Below are positions 72-14,580 of a stretch of DNA of 64,000 nucleotides, one piece after another (the first letter of the stretch is position 1; every line of letters starts with the position of its first letter). The DNA is from Parapedobacter luteus (GTDB lineage: Bacteria > Bacteroidota > Bacteroidia > Sphingobacteriales > Sphingobacteriaceae): positions 1 to 64,000 of the forward strand of contig NZ_FUYS01000003.1 of NCBI RefSeq assembly GCF_900168055.1, in the 5' to 3' direction. Below the pieces are notes generated by a model. The model made no database searches. It was not told where the DNA came from and saw nothing but the letters and a program-made list of their open reading frames with translations. A program made the position numbers and the translations under genes.

Positions 72-908
72 CTAACACGCCTGTTTATCGCCTTCAAAAG
101 CCGAAAGAGTAGCATATTCCGTTGGCGACATATTACCCAGGCTGTCGTGCGGTCTGTGATTGTTGTAGTCATCCATCCATTGCCAGGTAATTTCCCTCAC
201 TTCATCCAGGGTGTCAAACAGGTAACAGTCCAGCACATTATCGCGGTAGGTCCCGTTCAATCTTTCCACAAAACCGTTCTGCGTGGGCTTGCCGGGCTGA
301 ATGTAGATAAACTCAATGCCGTTGACCATACTCCATTCCGTTAAAAGCTGGGATATGAACTCCGGGCCGTTGTCCATCCTGATTTTCCCCGGCTTACCCC
401 TGCGTTTGATCAGGTGGTTCAATACCCAGACGACCCGGGAACTGCGCAGGGAATAGTCCACTTCGATATGCAGCGCTTCCCTGTTGAAATCATCCATTAC
501 GTTGAAAGAACGGAACCGTCGGCCATTGCTTAGTGCGTCGCTCATAAAGTCCATAGACCAGGTGTCGTTGGGCGATATGGGTTTAACAAGCGGCTGCTTT
601 ATCCTTTGCGGCAACCGCCGCTTTGCTTTCCTCCTGATGTTCAGTCCAATGAGCCTGTATACCCGGTGGACGCGCTTGTGGTTCCAGCAATGGCCCTCCC
701 GGCGTAATCTCCTGAACGCTTTCCAGAAACCTTCACGCGGGAAATCCTCCGCTTTCTGACGTAGGGCTGATTCCACATCGCTATCGTCACGTATACTGTT
801 ATAATAGTAACACGTCTTGCTCAATCCCAACACCCGGCACGCCCTGCTGATGCCTTTCCCTGACTCCATCAATTCCTGGGCAATCTGTTTTTTCTGGCAG
901 GGCTTCAA
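72..908 (-). CDS. IS3-family transposase OrfB (DDE integrase core)
   Basis: The catalytic half of the IS3 transposase, 278 residues. The HTH_21-type N-terminus ([13 protein letters not shown]) is followed by the rve integrase core. The DDE triad is visible as D in [11 protein letters not shown] in IRMDNGPEF and E in [13 protein letters not shown], with the integrase-3 tail [15 protein letters not shown]. The frame opens with TTG inside the orfA stop region, so it is probably made mainly as an OrfAB fusion by -1 frameshift at 911-917. Length and catalytic residues are complete, so the element may still be mobile. Confidence 0.93.
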
Positions 909-1171
909 AGCTTTTTTGCAATCACTTCCCTGGCCGCCTCTAAATCCAGGGCAAGCTCTGCATACATACGCTTAAGCTTACGGTTTTCTTCCTCAAGTTC
1001 TTTCACACGTTTCAGCTCGCTGCCGTCAAGCCCGCCGTATCGCTGCCGCCATTTGTAAAATGAGGCGGCACTAACACCATGTTCTCGCGTGAGTTCCTGA
1101 ACGCTTTTTCCTGCCTCGAACTCCTTAAGGATCCTGCTGATCTGCTCCGGTTTGAATCGTTTCCCTTTCAT
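905..1171 (-). CDS. IS3-family transposase OrfA (helix-turn-helix)
   Basis: An 88-residue DNA-binding subunit of the transposase. The N-terminal half is a helix-turn-helix (about residues 6-50, with RFKPEQI and the second helix [12 protein letters not shown]), followed by a leucine-zipper-like coiled coil ([17 protein letters not shown]) used for multimerisation in this family. It ends in AKKL just after the heptamer A AAA AAG. Its TGA overlaps the TTG that opens the orfB frame, so the full transposase is expected from -1 frameshifting. It is intact and probably functional. Confidence 0.93.
911..917 (-). other. -1 programmed frameshift heptamer A AAA AAG
   Basis: On the minus strand orfA reads GCA AAA AAG CTT TGA. 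The heptamer A AAA AAG is in the correct zero frame, and a one-base slip backwards moves the ribosome into the orfB frame (GCT TTG AAG CCC). This is the standard IS3-family signal for making the OrfAB transposase. Confidence 0.85.
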
Positions 1172-1238
1172 AATACACCGTTAAAGTTATCAATCATTTT
1201 TCTATTCTCTAACAGTCTTTTTTTCAGGGAAGCTTACA

Positions 1239-1674
1239 CAATTACGGTTACAAAGCAAAAATTTACGGAGATAACAATTACTATAAAAAACACAGGTGTA
1301 TTGAAACTGACCCACTTTCATCGCCACGTATTGGATATTGGCAGGTAGATTATTCTGACAAAGATAAATTTGCAGGAAAGAGTGTAGAAACATTTTTAAG
1401 GGACTACAATATGTATATTGAAATTGTCGAAATAAGAAAAGACGGTGTTAATATGAGTACTGCCGATTTTTCCGTTCCAGAAGAAGTTACTAAATGTTTA
1501 GAAGTTGAAGACGAATATCCATCACTTTTTGAAATGTACAAAAGTGATATAATCAAAAATTTGATTAATAAAAATTACTTAGGTAAGTGGGAATATAAAA
1601 ATAAAAAAGCCGACGAAATAAGAGAAAAAGAAGACAAACTTTGCTTTGACTTTTTGAATGAACTGTATAAATAA
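1239..1674 (+). pseudogene. 5'-truncated hypothetical gene cut by the IS
   Basis: The frame is open from the IS boundary to the TAA at 1672-1674 and encodes at least 144 residues. A start at 1411 would be internal: the codons before it read like normal protein (GYWQVDYSDKDKF, KSVETFLRDYNMYIEIVEI). The N-terminus is missing because of the IS. The protein is acidic and lysine-rich, AT-rich in base use, and has no family I recognise. A motif shared with another accessory gene (CCGTTATGTGCAAG) lies about 70 bases beyond its stop. Confidence 0.65.
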
Positions 1675-1741
1675 AAGCCCAGCCAACATTGTTCTTCGAT
1701 TGAACTTTAGTGCAAAATCCCGCCCATCGCCAATACGCGGC

Positions 1742-1755
1742 CCGTTATGTGCAAG
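1742..1755 (+). repeat. shared 14-base motif, copy 1 (CCGTTATGTGCAAG)
   Basis: The 14 bases CCGTTATGTGCAAG recur exactly at 9611-9624. Each copy lies just after the stop of one accessory gene and before the start of the next. It resembles a cassette boundary but does not fit the attC core boxes exactly. Confidence 0.6.
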
Positions 1756-1773
1756 GCTAAACGATAGACAGAA

Positions 1774-1995
1774 ATGAAACTAAAAGACATTTTTTCAGAC
1801 AATAAGACAAGAGTTTTCGTGGTGACTAATCAAGACGAAGGAGATGAACGTAATTGGATAATTGAGCCGACTGACTTTGACCTTTTGCCAGAAGAAGAAA
1901 TATATATTATTTTAAAAAGTCTGCCATCAGGAATCGGTTGCAAGCTCTTCGTCATTCCGAAAAATCTGAATAAGAGAAAGAAGCAGTTAAGTTAG
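1774..1995 (+). CDS. small hypothetical protein, 73 aa
   Basis: A short acidic protein with no family I recognise. It begins MKLKDIFSDNKT and ends in a lysine-rich tail (NKRKKQLS). It stands alone: the truncated gene before it ends 100 bases upstream, the shared 14-base motif lies 18 bases before its ATG, and the HipA-like/DUF3037 pair runs towards it from the other strand, ending 11 bases away. No signal peptide or membrane segment is visible. Its AT-rich coding sequence fits the surrounding accessory genes. Coding is likely but not certain. Confidence 0.5.
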   Translation: MKLKDIFSDNKTRVFVVTNQDEGDERNWIIEPTDFDLLPEEEIYIILKSLPSGIGCKLFVIPKNLNKRKKQLS

Positions 1996-2006
1996 TTACG
2001 TTTCGA

Positions 2007-2840
2007 TTATTCAACTATATCAAAATAGGGTAAGACCTGATGTTCAGCGACGTACTCCTCTATTTGTTGTACCTCATCAGTCGGCACCCATTGAATAGGC
2101 TTGTAATTTTTTAAGCTTTGCCAAATATCGTGATGGTCGTTCAGTTTTTTGGAAGGTTCATCGCCTACAAAGAAAAATTTAGCACCTTTCTCATGTCGTC
2201 TAATGGTGTCAACCAAAAAAAGGTGTGCTCGAACCTGAAGCTTAAGTGCATGAAGGGCTTTACCGAAATCACTCATTTCCCCTACCACCTTTACGTCATT
2301 CCTTCCGATAAATGACACTCTTGACGGAACAATTAGGCCTGCAACATCATTGTCAGTAAGCTCGACATCAAAGTTTACACGATCGCCGATTGACTTTACC
2401 AACCGTTGCTTTGCATGGGCAACGGGATCCCGCTCGCGCTCTTGCTGCCTAGGCAAAGTGAACACGAATTTTTCGAAAAGCTTATCGAATGTGTTCTCAT
2501 CAAGCGCAACATTCAGCGGTACAGGCTTGGAGAAAGCAAGCAAGTTGTTTGCATAAACGGAAAGATATTCTAAATAGCTCTCGCTTAAAAAGCGCTGGCC
2601 TTTATGCACCTTTAACAGATCAGACTGGCATGATGCGGCAAGTTGCTCGATAGCGCGTAAATTTGATTTAACGAGCTGATATCCGCCATCAGGTAGCAAA
2701 TCCTTAATAACGTTCAGCTTATCAACTGAATAGGAAAAATGACATTGAACACCATCAGCCATAAATAAGCCAATAGTAATGCGTTCATCCTGATTCGGAC
2801 GAATACTGCAATACAGGATGGAATAAAACGTCTTCATCAT
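2007..2840 (-). CDS. DUF3037 family protein, partner of HipA-like kinase
   Basis: A 277-residue DUF3037 protein; the family hallmark is the N-terminal strand region YSILYCSIRPNQDERITIGLFM. The biochemical role of DUF3037 is not established, but it is commonly encoded directly after a HipA-like kinase. Here its ATG overlaps the stop of that kinase (ATGA, 2837-2840), which implies translational coupling and joint function. It is soluble, with no signal peptide. Alternative start: the second Met, one codon later. By genetic layout it may be the antitoxin or accessory partner of the kinase, which is inference only. Confidence 0.8.
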   Translation of the reverse strand: MMKTFYSILYCSIRPNQDERITIGLFMADGVQCHFSYSVDKLNVIKDLLPDGGYQLVKSNLRAIEQLAASCQSDLLKVHKGQRFLSESYLEYLSVYANNLLAFSKPVPLNVALDENTFDKLFEKFVFTLPRQQERERDPVAHAKQRLVKSIGDRVNFDVELTDNDVAGLIVPSRVSFIGRNDVKVVGEMSDFGKALHALKLQVRAHLFLVDTIRRHEKGAKFFFVGDEPSKKLNDHHDIWQSLKNYKPIQWVPTDEVQQIEEYVAEHQVLPYFDIVE

Positions 2841-3664
2841 GCTCCTTTTGTTAGCGGCGCCACCAATTCTCTGAAGTTGGCCTCGGTATTATTCAACCAA
2901 GTGTCGTTTTCGATAACCGCATCGCGGATCTGCTGTTCCAATTGCTGTTTATTAGAACACCATTCATCAGGCATCCCTGCAACAATATCGGGCAACACAT
3001 TACCGCAATTTAATACAAAGGTAGGAAAGTTATCCAAAATAGCATTGGCCTCCTTGGCTATTTTCTTTGGATTATACAGCAAAACGTGCGCCAAATCAGC
3101 ATATAAGATACTGTCTTCCGCCGTGAGTTGAGCCAGCTCCTGCCCTAATCGGCAACCATCGAAAACGTCGGAATGGTCTATTGGGATAATCTGAAATACA
3201 TCGCCTAAAGATTGCACCAATAGGTTATAGTTGTTTGTGCTCCTATCGGTGTTAGCCAGCCATAAATCAAACAACGCAATCTTCAACAATGTATTCCTGC
3301 TCTGATACTTGCCTAGTTCGTGATAATTGCCCTTGAGGCCGACCAACATGTTGGATACGTCTACCGTTTCTTTCTGATAACGCAGGCCAAAGGTTGGCTT
3401 ATCGAAATGGTGAGGTTGCGTCCTGTTTGAAATTACTTCGTGATTAATATGTTCAGGCAGTATGGTCACTAACGCTCCTGGTAGGTGGGGAATACCCCAA
3501 GCATGAAGAAAACAGAGTGAACAATACTCATTAATCAATTTGCCATTAGAGTCGTACTTACAAATATACTCCTCAAAGTCATCTGCCATCACCACAACAG
3601 GCCTGCTTCCACCGGTTTCTATTGCTCGGTTAATGGGTGATATGGATATTCTGGATGGCAGCAA
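2837..3664 (-). CDS. HipA-like kinase family protein (HipA_2)
   Basis: A HipA-related serine/threonine kinase-like protein. It starts with the family's ISPINRAIETGGSRPVVV strand region. The catalytic-loop signature LANTDRSTNNYNLL has its Asp near residue 140, and the metal-binding region IPIDHSDVF follows near residue 163. It shares four bases with DUF3037 downstream. The frame extends upstream to a TTG at 3736, but that codon lies in the loop of a strong terminator (3719-3749), so a start at TTG 3664 (275 aa) is preferred. A TATCTTTA box about 20 bases before 3664 could be the -7 element. The exact start stays uncertain. Confidence 0.8.
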   Translation of the reverse strand: MLPSRISISPINRAIETGGSRPVVVMADDFEEYICKYDSNGKLINEYCSLCFLHAWGIPHLPGALVTILPEHINHEVISNRTQPHHFDKPTFGLRYQKETVDVSNMLVGLKGNYHELGKYQSRNTLLKIALFDLWLANTDRSTNNYNLLVQSLGDVFQIIPIDHSDVFDGCRLGQELAQLTAEDSILYADLAHVLLYNPKKIAKEANAILDNFPTFVLNCGNVLPDIVAGMPDEWCSNKQQLEQQIRDAVIENDTWLNNTEANFRELVAPLTKGA

Positions 3665-3718
3665 AAGGTAAAAGCAGTTAGTTGAGGTAAAGATATGAAT
3701 TTCAATGGAAAGAGAAAA

Positions 3719-3749
3719 CTGAGGACCAAAAGGCAAATTTGGTCCTCAG
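3719..3749 (-). terminator. rho-independent terminator upstream of the HipA-like gene
   Basis: A perfect 12-base stem (CTGAGGACCAAA / TTTGGTCCTCAG) with a 7-base loop is followed on the minus strand by TTTTCTCTTT. It ends transcription coming from the recombinase remnant and shows that the HipA-like gene must start downstream of it. Confidence 0.8.
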
Positions 3750-3755
3750 GAAAAA

Positions 3756-3959
3756 TCAGCGAATAAGACGCATTTCTGTCGGATTTTCTCTCACAAAAGT
3801 AGCTACGGTGTTTCGGTGAACACCGCGCTCCATGCAATCGTGCAAAATTTAATCTGCATAAGGTTTCGTCCTAGCCGAGACAATTCGGATACAATTAGTG
3901 TATCACCCTTTTGCATGCGATTTAGCAATCCACCAAACTTCCTGACTTCAATTTTTTTT
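3756..3959 (-). pseudogene. remnant of an Mpi-type serine recombinase (DNA invertase family)
   Basis: The minus strand encodes KIEVRKFGGLLNRMQKGDTL and then IVSELSRLGRNLMQI, the region around the conserved SRLGR helix of Mpi-like invertases. The frame then shifts: ILHDCMERGV continues in another frame after about four missing bases. The catalytic Ser at the N-terminus and the C-terminal DNA-binding part are both missing, so the gene is dead. It sits directly before the terminator at 3719-3749. It indicates that a site-specific recombinase was once active in this island. Confidence 0.7.
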
Positions 3960-4019
3960 GTGGCGCTACTGTATAGGCATACGGAGCAACCCGTCCGGAC
4001 GGGCCGTCAACGCCGTGGT

Positions 4020-4436
4020 TCAACGGCGGGAACCTGCCGAACGGATCCGCTTTTCTACCACGGCCTCCCGTTTGCGCCAGGCGGTCACTTGCGGGTCTTC
4101 ATATACCGGCAGCCCTTCATCATTCAGCAACCCCAGTGAATCAGCCAGCTTGCGGCTCAGCGCAGCCGAATCCTGGTCCCGCTCGCCGATGGCCTTCCGG
4201 TTGGCGGCCACCGCGGCCTCAGCCGCAGCAATGGCCCGGCGGATAACCTCCAATTCGGTCTTGTATTGCTTTTGCTTCCGCAGGATAACCATCATGCGGT
4301 TATAGGCATCAGCGTTCAGGCGCTTACCGCGGGTAAGTGTGCGGTACAGCTTCAGCGCCTCGGCATGCTTACCTGCTTTTTCCAGTTGCCGTGCCTCTTC
4401 CATCCGGGCGCTGGTGGCTATCTTCTTTTTTGCCAT
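4020..4436 (-). CDS. conserved hypothetical TPR-like protein, 138 aa
   Basis: A basic helical protein. Residues 10-70 look like tetratricopeptide-type helices (MEEARQLEKAGKHAEALKLY, then NADAYNRMMVILRKQKQYKT), followed by an Ala-rich coiled-coil stretch (VIRRAIAAAEAAVAANRKAI). Its GC content is clearly higher than that of the flanking remnants, so it may belong to the original chromosome. ATG at 4436 is the only good start. It stands alone, with the dead recombinase on one side and two remnants on the other. Helical repeats suggest protein binding; the function is unknown. Confidence 0.65.
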   Translation of the reverse strand: MAKKKIATSARMEEARQLEKAGKHAEALKLYRTLTRGKRLNADAYNRMMVILRKQKQYKTELEVIRRAIAAAEAAVAANRKAIGERDQDSAALSRKLADSLGLLNDEGLPVYEDPQVTAWRKREAVVEKRIRSAGSRR

Positions 4437-4560
4437 AATTAAACAGGGGGTGTGCTATCTTACCAACAGGTAAACGGCTGTTTGGTTTACGGGAGTGCCA
4501 CCCCCGGTTGCTCGGCAATAACGGTTTGCCAAGCGGATGAAAAAGAAAAAATATCCAAGA

Positions 4561-4683
4561 CAAAGAAGCTAATATGTACTGGTCGTCTATTTCTTTTAAC
4601 ATAATGAAGTACTTGGATTTACTGGCCGCTCCATTTTTAAAATAAAACGGATTGAAATAAATAAGGGTACCGGGCTGAAACAT
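4561..4683 (-). pseudogene. 3'-truncated hypothetical gene (N-terminal 41 codons)
   Basis: From ATG 4683 the frame encodes MFQPGTLIYFNPFYFKNG and continues to DDQYILASL, a start I associate with a Bacteroidota family of uncharacterised proteins of about 140 residues. After ILASL (4561) the frame becomes low-complexity and nonsense. I read it as a deletion remnant. It follows another remnant on the same strand by about 35 bases, so the two may have been one operon. Family recognition is from memory and unverified. Confidence 0.45.
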
Positions 4684-4717
4684 GGTGTAGGGTTGGTTAA
4701 TGGGCAAATGCAATGGT

Positions 4718-4983
4718 TTACTTCAGCGATTTGGATATATCGAGATATTCAATATGATCCGCATAACGTTGTTTTTTTTCTTCATCCAACAGGGTACTGA
4801 AATCGATTTGGTGGTCGGTGGTCATAATCTTTTTTGGCCAGAAGGCCTTCTAATACACCCGTTCTGCAAAATAGATAAGGGTATTACCTATTTTTTCGAT
4901 TTCATCTTGTGTAAAGATATGTGGCTGTCCCATTCGCTGCAATGTTGTCTTTTTATGATGCAAATCACGTAAAAAGGTTTGAT
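4718..4983 (-). pseudogene. decayed hypothetical gene with in-frame stop
   Basis: The minus strand reads NQTFLRDLHHKKTTLQRMGQ, then PHIFTQDEIEKIGNTLIYFA, a TAG, and in the same frame AFWPKKIMTTDHQIDFSTLL and ADHIEYLDISKSLK before TAA (4718-4720). The protein-like composition on both sides of the TAG suggests one gene with a nonsense mutation and no clear start. The family is not recognised. It lies directly upstream of the truncated MFQPGTLIYF gene. Confidence 0.45.
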
Positions 4984-5071
4984 TGTTAAAATCACTGCGC
5001 AATTATAGCGGTTGGGTGTGCAGTGTATCCGCACAGGTTTATGTATCTTCGTCTATCAATATTCATAAACT

Positions 5072-5536
5072 ATGGCAACCAATAAACAAGCCGCAATCCG
5101 TTATAAGGTACTGGATATGTGCCTAGCAAATACACATCGGAAATATACCTTTGATGACCTGCTGGAGGCCTGCAATGAACGGCTTGTTGAAATCAACCCC
5201 AGCCATGGCGGCATCAGTGTGCGTACGTTGCGCGATGATTTGAAATATATGCGGAGCGCCGAAGGCTGGGAGGCTCCGATTGAAACGTATCGAGCGGGAA
5301 AAACTACATATTGGATCAATGAATTGGTACCAACGTTGACACAAACATTCCTTCTTGAAAAAAGGAATTTACCCATCATCGGATTTGACACCAACCAATA
5401 CCTACGAGGCAGGGAGCATATCGGAAGTTTGTTTCATCATATCCTTTATAAACGGGTGGTGGCATTTACGTATCACCCGGCATTGAAACCAATCGTGACC
5501 TTGGGGGGGTCTGAAGTAAGTGGATTTCTTGATTAA
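5072..5536 (+). pseudogene. 3'-truncated WYL-domain transcriptional regulator
   Basis: The N-terminus (MATNKQAAIRYKVLDMCLAN, then SVRTLRDDLKYMR) is the winged-helix part of Bacteroidota WYL regulators, which usually run to about 300-340 residues. The linker region is short, and the WYL domain begins at IGFDTNQYLRGREHIGSLFH and HILYKRVVAFTYHPALKP. It then breaks off at residue 154, shortly after a run of seven G at 5504-5510. The rest of the WYL domain is absent. The end lies 45 bases before the repeated motif at 5582 that introduces the AraC gene, so a gene-cassette insertion or deletion may have removed the 3' part. Confidence 0.75.
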
Positions 5537-5581
5537 AGGCAACAATAAATTAATGTTGATTTGGACGCATGTATTTACTAG

Positions 5582-5597
5582 TTGGCGGTCATTGTAA
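5582..5597 (+). repeat. shared 16-base motif, copy 1 (TTGGCGGTCATTGTAA)
   Basis: TTGGCGGTCATTGTAA occurs again exactly at 9653-9668. In both places it precedes an AT-rich accessory gene by 20-40 bases, and here it also follows the broken WYL regulator. It may mark an insertion boundary. Confidence 0.55.
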
Positions 5598-5618
5598 CGA
5601 ACGACACCACAGAAACCA

Positions 5619-6353
5619 ATGAAGTACAAAAAAGTAAAACCTCACAAAGCACTAGAGCCCTTTATCCATTTCTATTGGGAGCTGAAAGGAAACGAGCTGG
5701 AGAGACAGTGGGAACGGGTTTTTCCGGATGGATGTGCCGGTATAGTAATGAATTTGGGAGATACTTGTTTGACTGACAACGGCTCGTTTTCAATGGAGTT
5801 TGGAAAAACTTATGTGGTTGGTGCAATGACTTCATTCAAAGACAGCTTTATTGATACCGATACACATTTAATAGGTGTGTGCCTAAAACCCGCAGCTTTT
5901 GCAAATTTCTATAGCTATGCCCCACAAAATGAGTTGACTAACGACACCGTTGAATTTGAAAAATCCAATTCGTTTGACGTGGATAAAACGTTTGACAATC
6001 CATTCAATTATTTTGACTGTTTCTTTTCAGATCGAATAAAAAGCAAAAGCAACCAGCTACAATCGGTTATCAACGATATACACGCAACAAACGGACAAAT
6101 CGGTATGTACGAGCTATCAAAACGAAATTTCACAACGGTGAGGCAGTTGGAGCGAAATTTTAAAAAGTTCATTGGACTATCCCCAAAAGAATATTCAAAC
6201 ATTATCCGTTTTCAGCATGCGTTGGAGTTAATCAAAAACCCAGATAGAAATCGGAGTTTATTGGGAATTGCCTTTGAATGTGGTTATTACGACCATTCCC
6301 ACCTTACCAATGAAATAAAACGGAACACAGGACTTTCCCCATCGCAGCTTTAA
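5619..6353 (+). CDS. AraC family regulator with DUF6597 N-terminal domain
   Basis: A 244-residue transcription factor. Residues 1-115 form the DUF6597-type sensor domain (HKALEPFIHFYWEL, VFPDGCAGIVMNLGD). The C-terminal AraC double helix-turn-helix spans about 150-244 (SKRNFTTVRQLERNFKKFIG, SPKEYSNIIRFQHALELI, FECGYYDHSHLTNEIKR). It is encoded 72 bases upstream of a dihydrofolate-reductase-like gene on the same strand, probably its target or partner. The ligand is unknown. The ATG at 5619 matches the family start MxYKxVKPHxxL. Base composition is AT-rich, like the other accessory genes here. Confidence 0.9.
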   Translation: MKYKKVKPHKALEPFIHFYWELKGNELERQWERVFPDGCAGIVMNLGDTCLTDNGSFSMEFGKTYVVGAMTSFKDSFIDTDTHLIGVCLKPAAFANFYSYAPQNELTNDTVEFEKSNSFDVDKTFDNPFNYFDCFFSDRIKSKSNQLQSVINDIHATNGQIGMYELSKRNFTTVRQLERNFKKFIGLSPKEYSNIIRFQHALELIKNPDRNRSLLGIAFECGYYDHSHLTNEIKRNTGLSPSQL

Positions 6354-12969: not shown

Positions 12970-13992
12970 TTAATCCAACAAACCAATACGCTCCCCCACT
13001 CCAAACGCATATCGCTGATAATCGATAAGTTGCCTGTCACCATGGTTATCCTTCCAAGCCTGCTCCTCATGGCTGAGATGCACTATCTCACCGGTACTTC
13101 TCCCCCTGAACACCCGGGCGACAAATTCGAGGATGTGCAGCTCCCCTTCCGTAAATTCGTGTTCATCGAAAGACATATTTGGGTAGTAAACCTCCAAGTA
13201 CTGGTCATCCTTGCCGTTCCGTTCGTCAACCAAAACCTTCCCGTCATCCTGTAGCCGCAGGTACAGCCGTCCATATTCGGCGGGTACAGGACCGTATGGG
13301 ATGGCACGGTATTGCAAACCGGTAATGGAATACCCGTGAGCCTTATATGCCAGGAAATCGGTATAGAAGAGCAGTTTATTGAGCTTGGTCTTATACAGGT
13401 TGCCGATATGCTGTTCAAAATAGGCTATCGTTTGTGCAATACGTGACAGGCTCAGCCGCCGATAGCCGTTATACGAATTGGGCGGATCTTCACGCAACAT
13501 GATTTGCGAAAGTTCGAGGTCATATAAGACATCGTTGCGCTGGTCGATTAATGACTGCGCCTTGGCGATAAACTTATTTACTTCGCGTTCGTCCAAAAAA
13601 TGACTGCTGGCAGCTACCTGCCGGATGAACTCCTCTGGCTCCCGTACGGACAGGATAAGCCGACCGTTGGCGACTGTGGGCATTTCTCCCGCTTCATACA
13701 GCCGATAGGTATTGGCCCCCAGCCCCAATATCTCCGACATCTTGGCGGCAGATACGCCATACTGCTCGCGGATCTGCCGGATTTCCTCCGGAAAAGGGAT
13801 ACCGTATTTCTCCCGGTATTGGTTGGTGGCCTGAACCGTGTTGAGCGTGTCCAATCGGCCATCGGTAAACCGCTCGCCGCTATCCTCACACAAATAATAA
13901 TGGTACACGATGTTAAACGTTTCCTTGCGGAACGTAAGGGTGTCCGCTTCGCGGACCAGTTTCATTGGTTTTCCTGTGATCGGGCTGTTCAT
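12970..13992 (-). CDS. MqsA-like HTH plus Panacea (DUF4065/SocA-like) antitoxin
   Basis: A 340-residue fusion. Residues 1-110 resemble MqsA: a small N-terminal domain (YHYYLCEDSGERFTD) that has lost the zinc CxxC pairs, then a helix-turn-helix (IRQIREQYGVSAAKMSEILG, NTYRLYEAGEMP). Residues about 195-335 carry the Panacea signature (KTKLNKLLFYTDFLAYKAHG, SITGLQYRAIPYGPVP, SHEEQAWKDN). Panacea proteins are antitoxins paired with many different toxins. The gene shares four bases (ATGA, 13989-13992) with the upstream MqsR-like gene, the usual tight coupling. Palindromes upstream are its likely autoregulatory sites. Confidence 0.87.
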   Translation of the reverse strand: MNSPITGKPMKLVREADTLTFRKETFNIVYHYYLCEDSGERFTDGRLDTLNTVQATNQYREKYGIPFPEEIRQIREQYGVSAAKMSEILGLGANTYRLYEAGEMPTVANGRLILSVREPEEFIRQVAASSHFLDEREVNKFIAKAQSLIDQRNDVLYDLELSQIMLREDPPNSYNGYRRLSLSRIAQTIAYFEQHIGNLYKTKLNKLLFYTDFLAYKAHGYSITGLQYRAIPYGPVPAEYGRLYLRLQDDGKVLVDERNGKDDQYLEVYYPNMSFDEHEFTEGELHILEFVARVFRGRSTGEIVHLSHEEQAWKDNHGDRQLIDYQRYAFGVGERIGLLD

Positions 13993-14348
13993 GTTTTCTC
14001 CTTTTTAAAAGGATAGTTGATGGGGTGCTCCGCCGGATGGAATGATATGCAAATGACCGGATTGCTTGTTGTCCCCATTGATATTTTTATATATAGTTCG
14101 TTGTTCTTATATCTTTTGCCGAATACCCACATGCTGGCTATGCCATATAGCCTATCATCCAGCGGGCCTTCGCTATAATCAGTAACCGTGAGCGACTCCA
14201 CGATTTCACCTCGCTTGACTGGCGTAATCTCCAAATCCAACAGCGTCTGCGCATTCTTTGGTCTGCTATCTCTGAAAATGATGCCAAATACGCTGCACTT
14301 GGCAAAGAACTCTTGCAGGAAATGGGAAACGTCGTCTTTTGTGGCCAC
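13989..14348 (-). CDS. probable toxin (MqsR/RelE-like) paired with Panacea antitoxin
   Basis: A 119-residue protein. It is placed as toxin by position: first gene of a two-gene operon, coupled through ATGA to the MqsA-Panacea antitoxin. The pattern SLTVTDYSEGP...MWVFGK..K..ELYIKISM..NPVICISFHPAE resembles the strand order of MqsR, including ELYIKI near VYLKI of MqsR and a final ISFH near VSFK; this is weak, by-eye similarity. If right, it would be a ribosome-dependent or free mRNA interferase. The start is GTG 14348; the only upstream alternative in frame is ATT. Confidence 0.65.
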   Translation of the reverse strand: MATKDDVSHFLQEFFAKCSVFGIIFRDSRPKNAQTLLDLEITPVKRGEIVESLTVTDYSEGPLDDRLYGIASMWVFGKRYKNNELYIKISMGTTSNPVICISFHPAEHPINYPFKKEKT

Positions 14349-14494
14349 GGCAATACGGAATTAAATGGATACATCAAACATTCCCCCCATCTCTTCGCAA
14401 GAAACAACTTATCCGTGACAAGTTTCCCACATGTTAAAAATCCCTAATCCTCACTGATACAAATCGAGGCGGTTTTCCATCGTTTATGTAAACA

Positions 14495-14580
14495 CAAACA
14501 TACAACTAATAAGTTGAATAAAAAAATATTTGTTTTCATTTTTGCACTTATTAGTTGATATCAATCATGGTTGATATCAA
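14495..14580 (-). promoter_or_regulatory. promoter with two kinds of palindrome, likely PanA operator
   Basis: Minus strand -7 box TATGTTTG at 14495-14502, with a weak TTTT at -33. Upstream lie CAACTAATAAGTTG (14503-14516), its inverted core ACTTATTAGT (14546-14555), and two perfect TTGATATCAA palindromes (14555-14564, 14571-14580) 16 bases apart. They fit dimer binding by the MqsA-like helix-turn-helix. The leader to the GTG start would be about 140 bases. Confidence 0.6.

What the first reader, a model, noticed from the sequence alone, without database searches (positions are those of the whole stretch)
12970..14580. MqsA-Panacea antitoxin with an MqsR-like toxin and a double-palindrome operator
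The antitoxin joins an MqsA-like DNA-binding half, which has lost its zinc cysteines, to a Panacea domain. The toxin candidate is coupled by ATGA and resembles MqsR only in strand pattern. Two perfect TTGATATCAA palindromes and two copies of a CAACTAATAAGTTG-type repeat stand upstream. Panacea antitoxins take many toxins, so the identity of this toxin could be new.
Basis: partly seen in the sequence, partly recalled or inferred. Interest (0 to 1): 0.6.

Follow-up and report, generated by a model that had tools for sequence, protein, structure and literature searches.

The report
MqsR-like toxin with Panacea antitoxin
This is a two-gene bacterial self-poisoning switch (a probable RNA-cutting toxin and its antidote) of a kind already shown to work in other bacteria; here the antidote has lost its zinc site, and a conserved pair of DNA sites probably lets it shut off its own genes.

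Summary
The two genes are real and functionally constrained. The 340-residue antitoxin has an MqsA-like N-terminal domain that lacks three of the four zinc cysteines, an HTH and a Panacea domain. The 119-residue upstream gene is a distant MqsR relative, supported by sequence as well as strand pattern. The pair recurs across Bacteroidota and on plasmids and phages: 41 of 45 non-redundant loci with an intact toxin have a large antitoxin directly behind it. NCBI already labels homologues 'MqsR family toxin' plus 'SocA-domain antitoxin', and the MqsR plus ZBD-HTH-Panacea architecture was validated experimentally (Bacillus fungorum, PMC10440598). So the toxin is not a new kind.

New detail: (1) the operator is the CAACT-N4-AGTTG box, found 31 times upstream of 44 loci against 0.8 expected. 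A two-box array spaced 41-42 bp recurs in 12 of 48 regions, and the proximal box abuts the -7 promoter element. (2) The TTGATATCAA palindromes are present but absent from two congeners. (3) Zinc-site loss is lineage-wide, with four-cysteine relatives surviving. (4) MqsR's catalytic Tyr is invariant, but Lys96 is replaced by an invariant His.

Best reading: an autorepressed MqsR-like RNase toxin-antitoxin module with Panacea as probable sensor. Toxicity, neutralisation and repressor binding are untested here.

The parts
13989..14348 (-). MqsR-like toxin gene, 119 aa, GTG start; stop overlaps antitoxin start (ATGA)
   Evidence: orthologues in Bacteroidota; dN/dS 0.10-0.12 among three Parapedobacter; 28 of 39 family members hit PF15723 MqsR_toxin at E<=1, next best family 3 of 39
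12970..13992 (-). Antitoxin gene, 340 aa: zinc-less MqsA-like N-domain, HTH, linker, Panacea
   Evidence: AF2 model pLDDT 92, best solved match E. coli MqsA 3gn5; dN/dS 0.05-0.09
13795..13992 (-). Pseudo zinc-binding domain (residues about 1-66), inferred toxin-neutralising domain
   Evidence: SPITG...CEDSG replaces CPxC...CxxC; four-Cys relatives L058, L063, L064 and L111; neutralising role by analogy to B. fungorum PanA (PMC10440598)
13603..13794 (-). HTH DNA-binding domain (residues about 67-130)
   Evidence: PF01381 and TIGR03830 matches; helices in the AF2 model
13051..13383 (-). Panacea domain (residues 204-314), probable sensor
   Evidence: PF13274 E 7e-19; only copy found in the genome; sensor role is the hypothesis of PMC10440598
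14503..14516 (-). Proximal operator box CAACTTATTAGTTG, directly upstream of the -7 element
   Evidence: conserved box: 31 hits vs 0.78 expected in 44 upstream regions; only perfect match in the window
14544..14557 (-). Distal operator box CAACTAATAAGTGC, 41 bp from the proximal box
   Evidence: 41-42 bp pair spacing in 12 of 48 regions, about 0.002 expected per spacing
14495..14502 (-). Bacteroidota-type -7 promoter element TATGTTTG (TAnnTTTG)
   Evidence: same position relative to the box in P. indicus and P. koreensis
14555..14564 (.). Palindrome TTGATATCAA copy 1, overlaps the distal box
   Evidence: absent from congeners
14571..14580 (.). Palindrome TTGATATCAA copy 2, 16 bp from copy 1
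   Evidence: 21 genomic sites; absent from congeners

Best explanation
A type II toxin-antitoxin operon of the Panacea (PanAT) kind. The first gene encodes a distant MqsR-like protein that most likely cuts mRNA with Tyr86, and probably His104, and so stops translation (inferred). The second gene encodes an antitoxin whose MqsA-like N-domain, folded without zinc, most likely binds and blocks the toxin (inferred from B. fungorum PanA). Its HTH dimer represses the operon by binding two CAACT-N4-AGTTG boxes 41 bp apart, the proximal one against the -7 promoter element (boxes shown; binding inferred). The Panacea domain most likely senses a trigger, possibly phage infection, and frees or activates the toxin (hypothesis).
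For: Conserved gene pair: of 45 non-redundant loci with an intact toxin, 41 have a >300-aa antitoxin ORF directly downstream, typically within 12 bp (sequences). Toxin-MqsR homology: 28 of 39 members hit PF15723 at E<=1, best 8e-5, next family 3 of 39; L061 E 5.7e-4 over nearly the whole model; Marinitoga phage toxin E 2.8e-4; hhalign vs canonical MqsR probability 90.5; the widened family profile ranks 8 of 10 canonical MqsR above all of 2000 shuffles. AF2 toxin model H-H-H-E-E-E-E, pLDDT 86. Antitoxin: E. coli MqsA is the only PDB fold match with E below 0.001 and top sequence match. Operator statistics; E. coli MqsA binds AACCT-N3-AGGTT, two copies in its own promoter (PMC4894380). Purifying selection on both genes. 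Same architecture validated: ZBD neutralises MqsR, predicted catalytic Tyr required (PMC10440598). Toxin remnants without antitoxin are broken (G007), while some loci keep the antitoxin beside a broken toxin (L021; L042, L066).
Against: The window toxin itself scores only 12.4 bits against PF15723 (cut-off 26.2). Foldseek of the toxin model returned no MqsR or RelE among the matches shown from the PDB or viral libraries. Of MqsR's toxicity residues K56, Q68, Y81, K96, only Y81 is kept. Kurata et al. report one PanA-associated MqsR that was toxic but not rescued by its PanA in E. coli. No toxicity, RNase or DNA-binding data exist for this pair.
Confidence: 0.78

Rival explanations
1. The 119-aa protein is a toxin of a different fold or target (not an mRNA interferase), and the Panacea domain rather than the N-domain neutralises it.
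For: Panacea neutralises toxins directly when it stands alone (PMC10440598); no Foldseek match to MqsR; three of four MqsR catalytic residues not conserved.
Against: MqsR_toxin is the only recurrent Pfam match across the family and the profile comparison is significant. The antitoxin carries an MqsA-type N-domain, the known MqsR neutraliser. Related toxins pair with a non-Panacea HTH antitoxin (L043, L044, L071), so Panacea is dispensable in the wider group.
Confidence: 0.13
2. Same toxin-antitoxin biochemistry, but its maintained role is selfish stabilisation of mobile elements (addiction), not stress or phage sensing; Panacea serves only stability or dimerisation.
For: Copies lie on plasmids, phage contigs and beside a tyrosine integrase (L111, L112). 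The window locus lies in a variable region: a near-identical relative is collinear up to 12807 and then lacks the pair.
Against: The chromosomal window copy has no integrase nearby and is under purifying selection. Some neighbours are defence or restriction genes (CBASS in L104, DNA methylase in L105, methyltransferase-like ORF in L111). MqsRAC shows an MqsR system acting in phage defence (PMC9519451).
Confidence: 0.3
3. The pair is not a toxin-antitoxin system but a transcription regulator with a small non-toxic partner.
For: No toxicity data; the HTH protein and the operator boxes would suit a plain autoregulator.
Against: Toxin-first overlapping operon, homology of both parts to a validated toxin-antitoxin system, and spread across phyla, plasmids and phages; broken toxins occur beside intact antitoxins.
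Confidence: 0.05

Closest known systems
Bacillus fungorum MqsR(D2):PanA (Ernits et al. 2023, PMC10440598)
   Same: MqsR toxin with an antitoxin of N-terminal MqsA-like domain, HTH and C-terminal Panacea; experimentally validated, N-domain neutralises
   Different: There the N-domain is described as a Zn2+-binding domain; here three of four zinc cysteines are lost. Sequences not compared directly here (accession only in its supplement)
E. coli MqsR/MqsA
   Same: Toxin-first operon, MqsA fold of the antitoxin, two palindromic operator boxes in the promoter, catalytic Tyr81 equivalent (Y86) kept
   Different: No Panacea in E. coli MqsA; zinc site intact there; K56, Q68 and K96 not conserved here (K96 position is an invariant His); box is CAACT-N4-AGTTG rather than AACCT-N3-AGGTT
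MqsR family toxin plus SocA-domain antitoxin as annotated in Bacteroides finegoldii and Tenacibaculum plasmids
   Same: Direct homologues: 53% toxin identity over 112 residues, 39% antitoxin identity, same order
   Different: Plasmid-borne; no functional data in the records
MqsRAC phage-defence system (PMC9519451)
   Same: MqsR toxin with an antitoxin that needs an added partner and acts in phage defence
   Different: The addition is a SecB-like chaperone, not Panacea
Pseudo-ZBD of CapRel/toxSAS antitoxins (PMC10440598)
   Same: Precedent for a zinc-less domain of this type that neutralises a toxin
   Different: Different toxin (toxSAS)
SocAB (Caulobacter, type VI)
   Same: Panacea-domain antitoxin
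   Different: SocA is a proteolytic adaptor; SocB targets the sliding clamp; NCBIfam SocA model scores 12.5 against cut-off 190

Membership tests
PanAT (Panacea-containing toxin-antitoxin) | Panacea domain (PF13274) above cut-off | tested here: met
   69.3 bits, cut-off 25.7
PanAT (Panacea-containing toxin-antitoxin) | Conserved two-gene operon with a small partner gene | tested here: met
   41 of 45 intact-toxin loci
PanAT (Panacea-containing toxin-antitoxin) | Partner toxic, rescued by the antitoxin | not testable with these tools
   needs expression assays
MqsR toxin family (PF15723) | Profile match above curated cut-off | tested here: not met
   12.4 bits, cut-off 26.2 for the window protein; best member E 8e-5
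MqsR toxin family (PF15723) | Homology to canonical MqsR by profile comparison | tested here: met
   hhalign probability 90.5, E 1.4e-6; shuffle-controlled HMM search
MqsR toxin family (PF15723) | Toxicity residues K56, Q68, Y81, K96 | tested here: not met
   Y81 -> Y86 invariant; K96 -> H104 invariant; K56 and Q68 positions (about E60, V75) not conserved as Lys/Gln
MqsR toxin family (PF15723) | RelE/MqsR fold | tested here: inconclusive
   AF2 element order H-H-H-E-E-E-E fits my reading of MqsR; Foldseek gave no MqsR hit among those shown
MqsR toxin family (PF15723) | RNase activity | not testable with these tools
   needs biochemistry
MqsA antitoxin family | Four zinc cysteines | tested here: not met
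   one of four remains; relatives L058, L063, L064, L111 keep all four
MqsA antitoxin family | MqsA fold and HTH | tested here: met
   TIGR03830 E 1e-15 (below its cut-off); PDB sequence match; Foldseek 3gn5 probability 1.00
MqsA antitoxin family | Autorepression through palindromes in its own promoter | tested here: inconclusive
   boxes conserved; binding not testable here
SocA (type VI antitoxin) | SocA equivalog model match | tested here: not met
   12.5 bits, cut-off 190

The most novel reading that the evidence does not exclude
A Bacteroidota-wide branch of MqsR toxins has re-equipped its active site (invariant Tyr86, His104, Lys88, Arg29, Lys31; Lys96 and Gln68 lost), so its RNA-cutting chemistry or cleavage specificity differs from E. 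coli MqsR. It co-evolved with a metal-free MqsA-like domain, making release of the toxin independent of zinc or redox state and dependent on the Panacea sensor.
Probability: 0.3. Interest if true: 0.45.

Novelty: new member of a known kind. Interest (0 to 1): 0.3.

Why it matters
The role of Panacea in antitoxins that already carry a neutralising domain is an open question. This family is a good test bed: it is large, keeps the same domain order, spans zinc-binding and zinc-less forms, and has a defined two-box operator. It lets one ask what Panacea adds (sensor or not) and whether a toxin-binding MqsA domain can work without zinc. Otherwise it is an ordinary addition to the Panacea network.

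Tried and rejected
Foldseek of the toxin model against PDB and viral structures: no usable match. PDB sequence search with the toxin profile: only a chance hit to a kinase. PADLOC: none. NCBIfam: nothing for the toxin. Canonical MqsR (PF15723) in the own genome: none, but the controls were silent too. Rfam around the operon: none. TTGATATCAA as the operator: rejected as main site because absent from two congeners, although two copies so close are not chance. A regulon beyond the operon: only two other perfect boxes in the genome, no more than the backwards control; one, read directly, shows no promoter-like context; the other was not examined. Clean empty site in a near relative: not obtained, since the right flank differs too. 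Brown et al. 2011 on MqsA-DNA: not held.

Full report
Observation. Both genes are under purifying selection among three congeners: dN/dS 0.10-0.12 for the toxin, 0.05-0.09 for the antitoxin.

Antitoxin. Residues 204-314 are a Panacea domain (PF13274, 69.3 bits, cut-off 25.7), the only copy found in this genome. Residues 15-117 match the MqsA family model just below its cut-off (57.6 against 61.8 bits, E 1e-15). A family profile picks E. coli MqsA from the PDB by sequence, and the AlphaFold2 model (pLDDT 92) has MqsA 3gn5 as its only Foldseek match with E below 0.001. The zinc motif is degenerate: SPITG...CEDSG instead of CPxC...CxxC. This is lineage-wide: almost all of the antitoxins of the survey read SPxTG or close to it with one cysteine left. 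Relatives L058, L063, L064 and L111 keep all four cysteines and L040 three, so the loss is most simply a derived state (inference).

Toxin. The window protein alone gives only a weak MqsR_toxin hit (12.4 bits), but the family does better: 28 of 39 members hit PF15723 at E<=1, best 8e-5, with the next family at 3 of 39. Plasmid and phage members score as well as E 3e-4, profile-profile comparison with canonical Prevotella MqsR gives probability 90.5, and a widened family profile ranks 8 of 10 canonical MqsR above all of 2000 shuffles. The AlphaFold2 model (pLDDT 86) has three helices followed by four strands, the order I read for E. coli MqsR. Foldseek nevertheless showed neither MqsR nor RelE among its listed matches, so the fold is supported by sequence and element order only. 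Invariant residues include R29, K31, N32, P62, Y86, K88 and S102-F103-H104. Of the E. coli residues needed for toxicity (K56, Q68, Y81, K96; PMC2791442), Y81 corresponds to Y86 and the K96 position is the invariant His104; the other two are not kept. By the strict rule the protein is therefore MqsR-like and not filed as an MqsR.

Co-occurrence. A toxin relative occurs in 19 of 401 genomes of the order and 27 of 396 of the phylum. Of 45 non-redundant loci with an intact toxin, 41 have an ORF of more than 300 aa directly behind it; one more is cut by a contig end; three (L043, L044, L071) have divergent toxins with a 165-184-aa HTH antitoxin without Panacea. Toxin remnants occur: L021 (internal stop), L024 (N-terminus lost), and L042 and L066, each beside an intact or partly read antitoxin. 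In G007 a toxin in pieces has no antitoxin next to it. Plasmid and phage copies exist, and NCBI names two of the plasmid pairs 'MqsR family toxin' with a SocA-domain or DUF4065 antitoxin.

Operator. A box CAACT-N4-AGTTG recurs upstream: 31 sites within one mismatch over 44 upstream regions of 200 bp, 0.78 expected from dinucleotide shuffles; 25 loci have at least one, 0.75 expected (spacers of 3 to 5 were allowed and all but one site had 4). In 12 of 48 regions there are two boxes 41 or 42 bp apart, about four DNA turns, where about 0.002 pairs per spacing are expected. Relatedness inflates such counts, but the set spans several families. In the window the proximal box (14503-14516) directly precedes the -7 element TATGTTTG (14495-14502) and the distal box is at 14544-14557. 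P. indicus and P. koreensis carry both boxes, and by direct count a third about 42 bp further up. E. coli MqsA binds AACCT-N3-AGGTT, two copies in its own promoter (PMC4894380), so the design is the same with a different half-site. The TTGATATCAA palindromes are real and improbable as a pair, but absent from the congeners; one overlaps the distal box.

Mechanism. Most likely: the operon is repressed by antitoxin dimers on the two boxes; the zinc-less N-domain holds the MqsR-like RNase inactive; Panacea receives a signal. The first step rests on the boxes shown here and on E. coli MqsA. The second rests on truncation data for B. fungorum PanA, where the N-domain neutralises and Panacea does not (PMC10440598). 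The third is the hypothesis of those authors. A phage-defence role is plausible: MqsRAC defends E. coli against T2 (PMC9519451), and neighbours in relatives include CBASS, DNA methylase and integrase genes. It is not shown.

Novelty. The architecture, the toxin kind and the promiscuity of Panacea are published (PMC8832971; PMC10440598), and zinc-less domains of this type have a precedent in the CapRel pseudo-ZBD. What this adds is a well-sampled Bacteroidota branch with lineage-wide zinc loss, a changed active-site signature and a defined two-box operator. I file it as a new member of a known kind.

Noticed in passing
window 14349-14494 (-): In this species, P. indicus, P. koreensis and L031 the toxin has a long 5' leader with a conserved stretch ACTTGTCACGGATAAGTTGTTT (altered in P. 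koreensis) and a six-codon mini-ORF (MFDV[SF]I, stop) just before the toxin start; several more distant relatives have short leaders.
   Followed up: partly
window 12808 and G001:C13:85876 (L133): A near-identical relative (96-97% DNA identity) is collinear to 12807, then carries an ATPase-like gene instead of the toxin-antitoxin pair: a variable locus.
   Followed up: partly
L043, L044, L071: Related small toxins (motif FSNHxPxxPMxxPF) paired with a 165-184-aa HTH antitoxin that has no Panacea domain and no recognised MqsA domain; a possible further branch without a Pfam name.
   Followed up: partly
G007:C132 about 4660-4860 (L005, L006): Frame-broken toxin remnant without antitoxin in another genome of the same genus, near a transposase-like ORF.
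   Followed up: no
model of window 12970-13992 against PDB 7yk3_B: Second Foldseek match of the antitoxin is the Mycobacterium tuberculosis DarTG complex chain B (probability 0.99, E 0.036); a possible fold link between Panacea-type and DarG antitoxin domains.
   Followed up: no
L111 (IMG/VR contig, 205-6345): A four-cysteine version of the pair sits between tyrosine-integrase/excisionase-like genes and a DNA methyltransferase-like ORF, suggesting an integrative element with a defence cargo.
   Followed up: no
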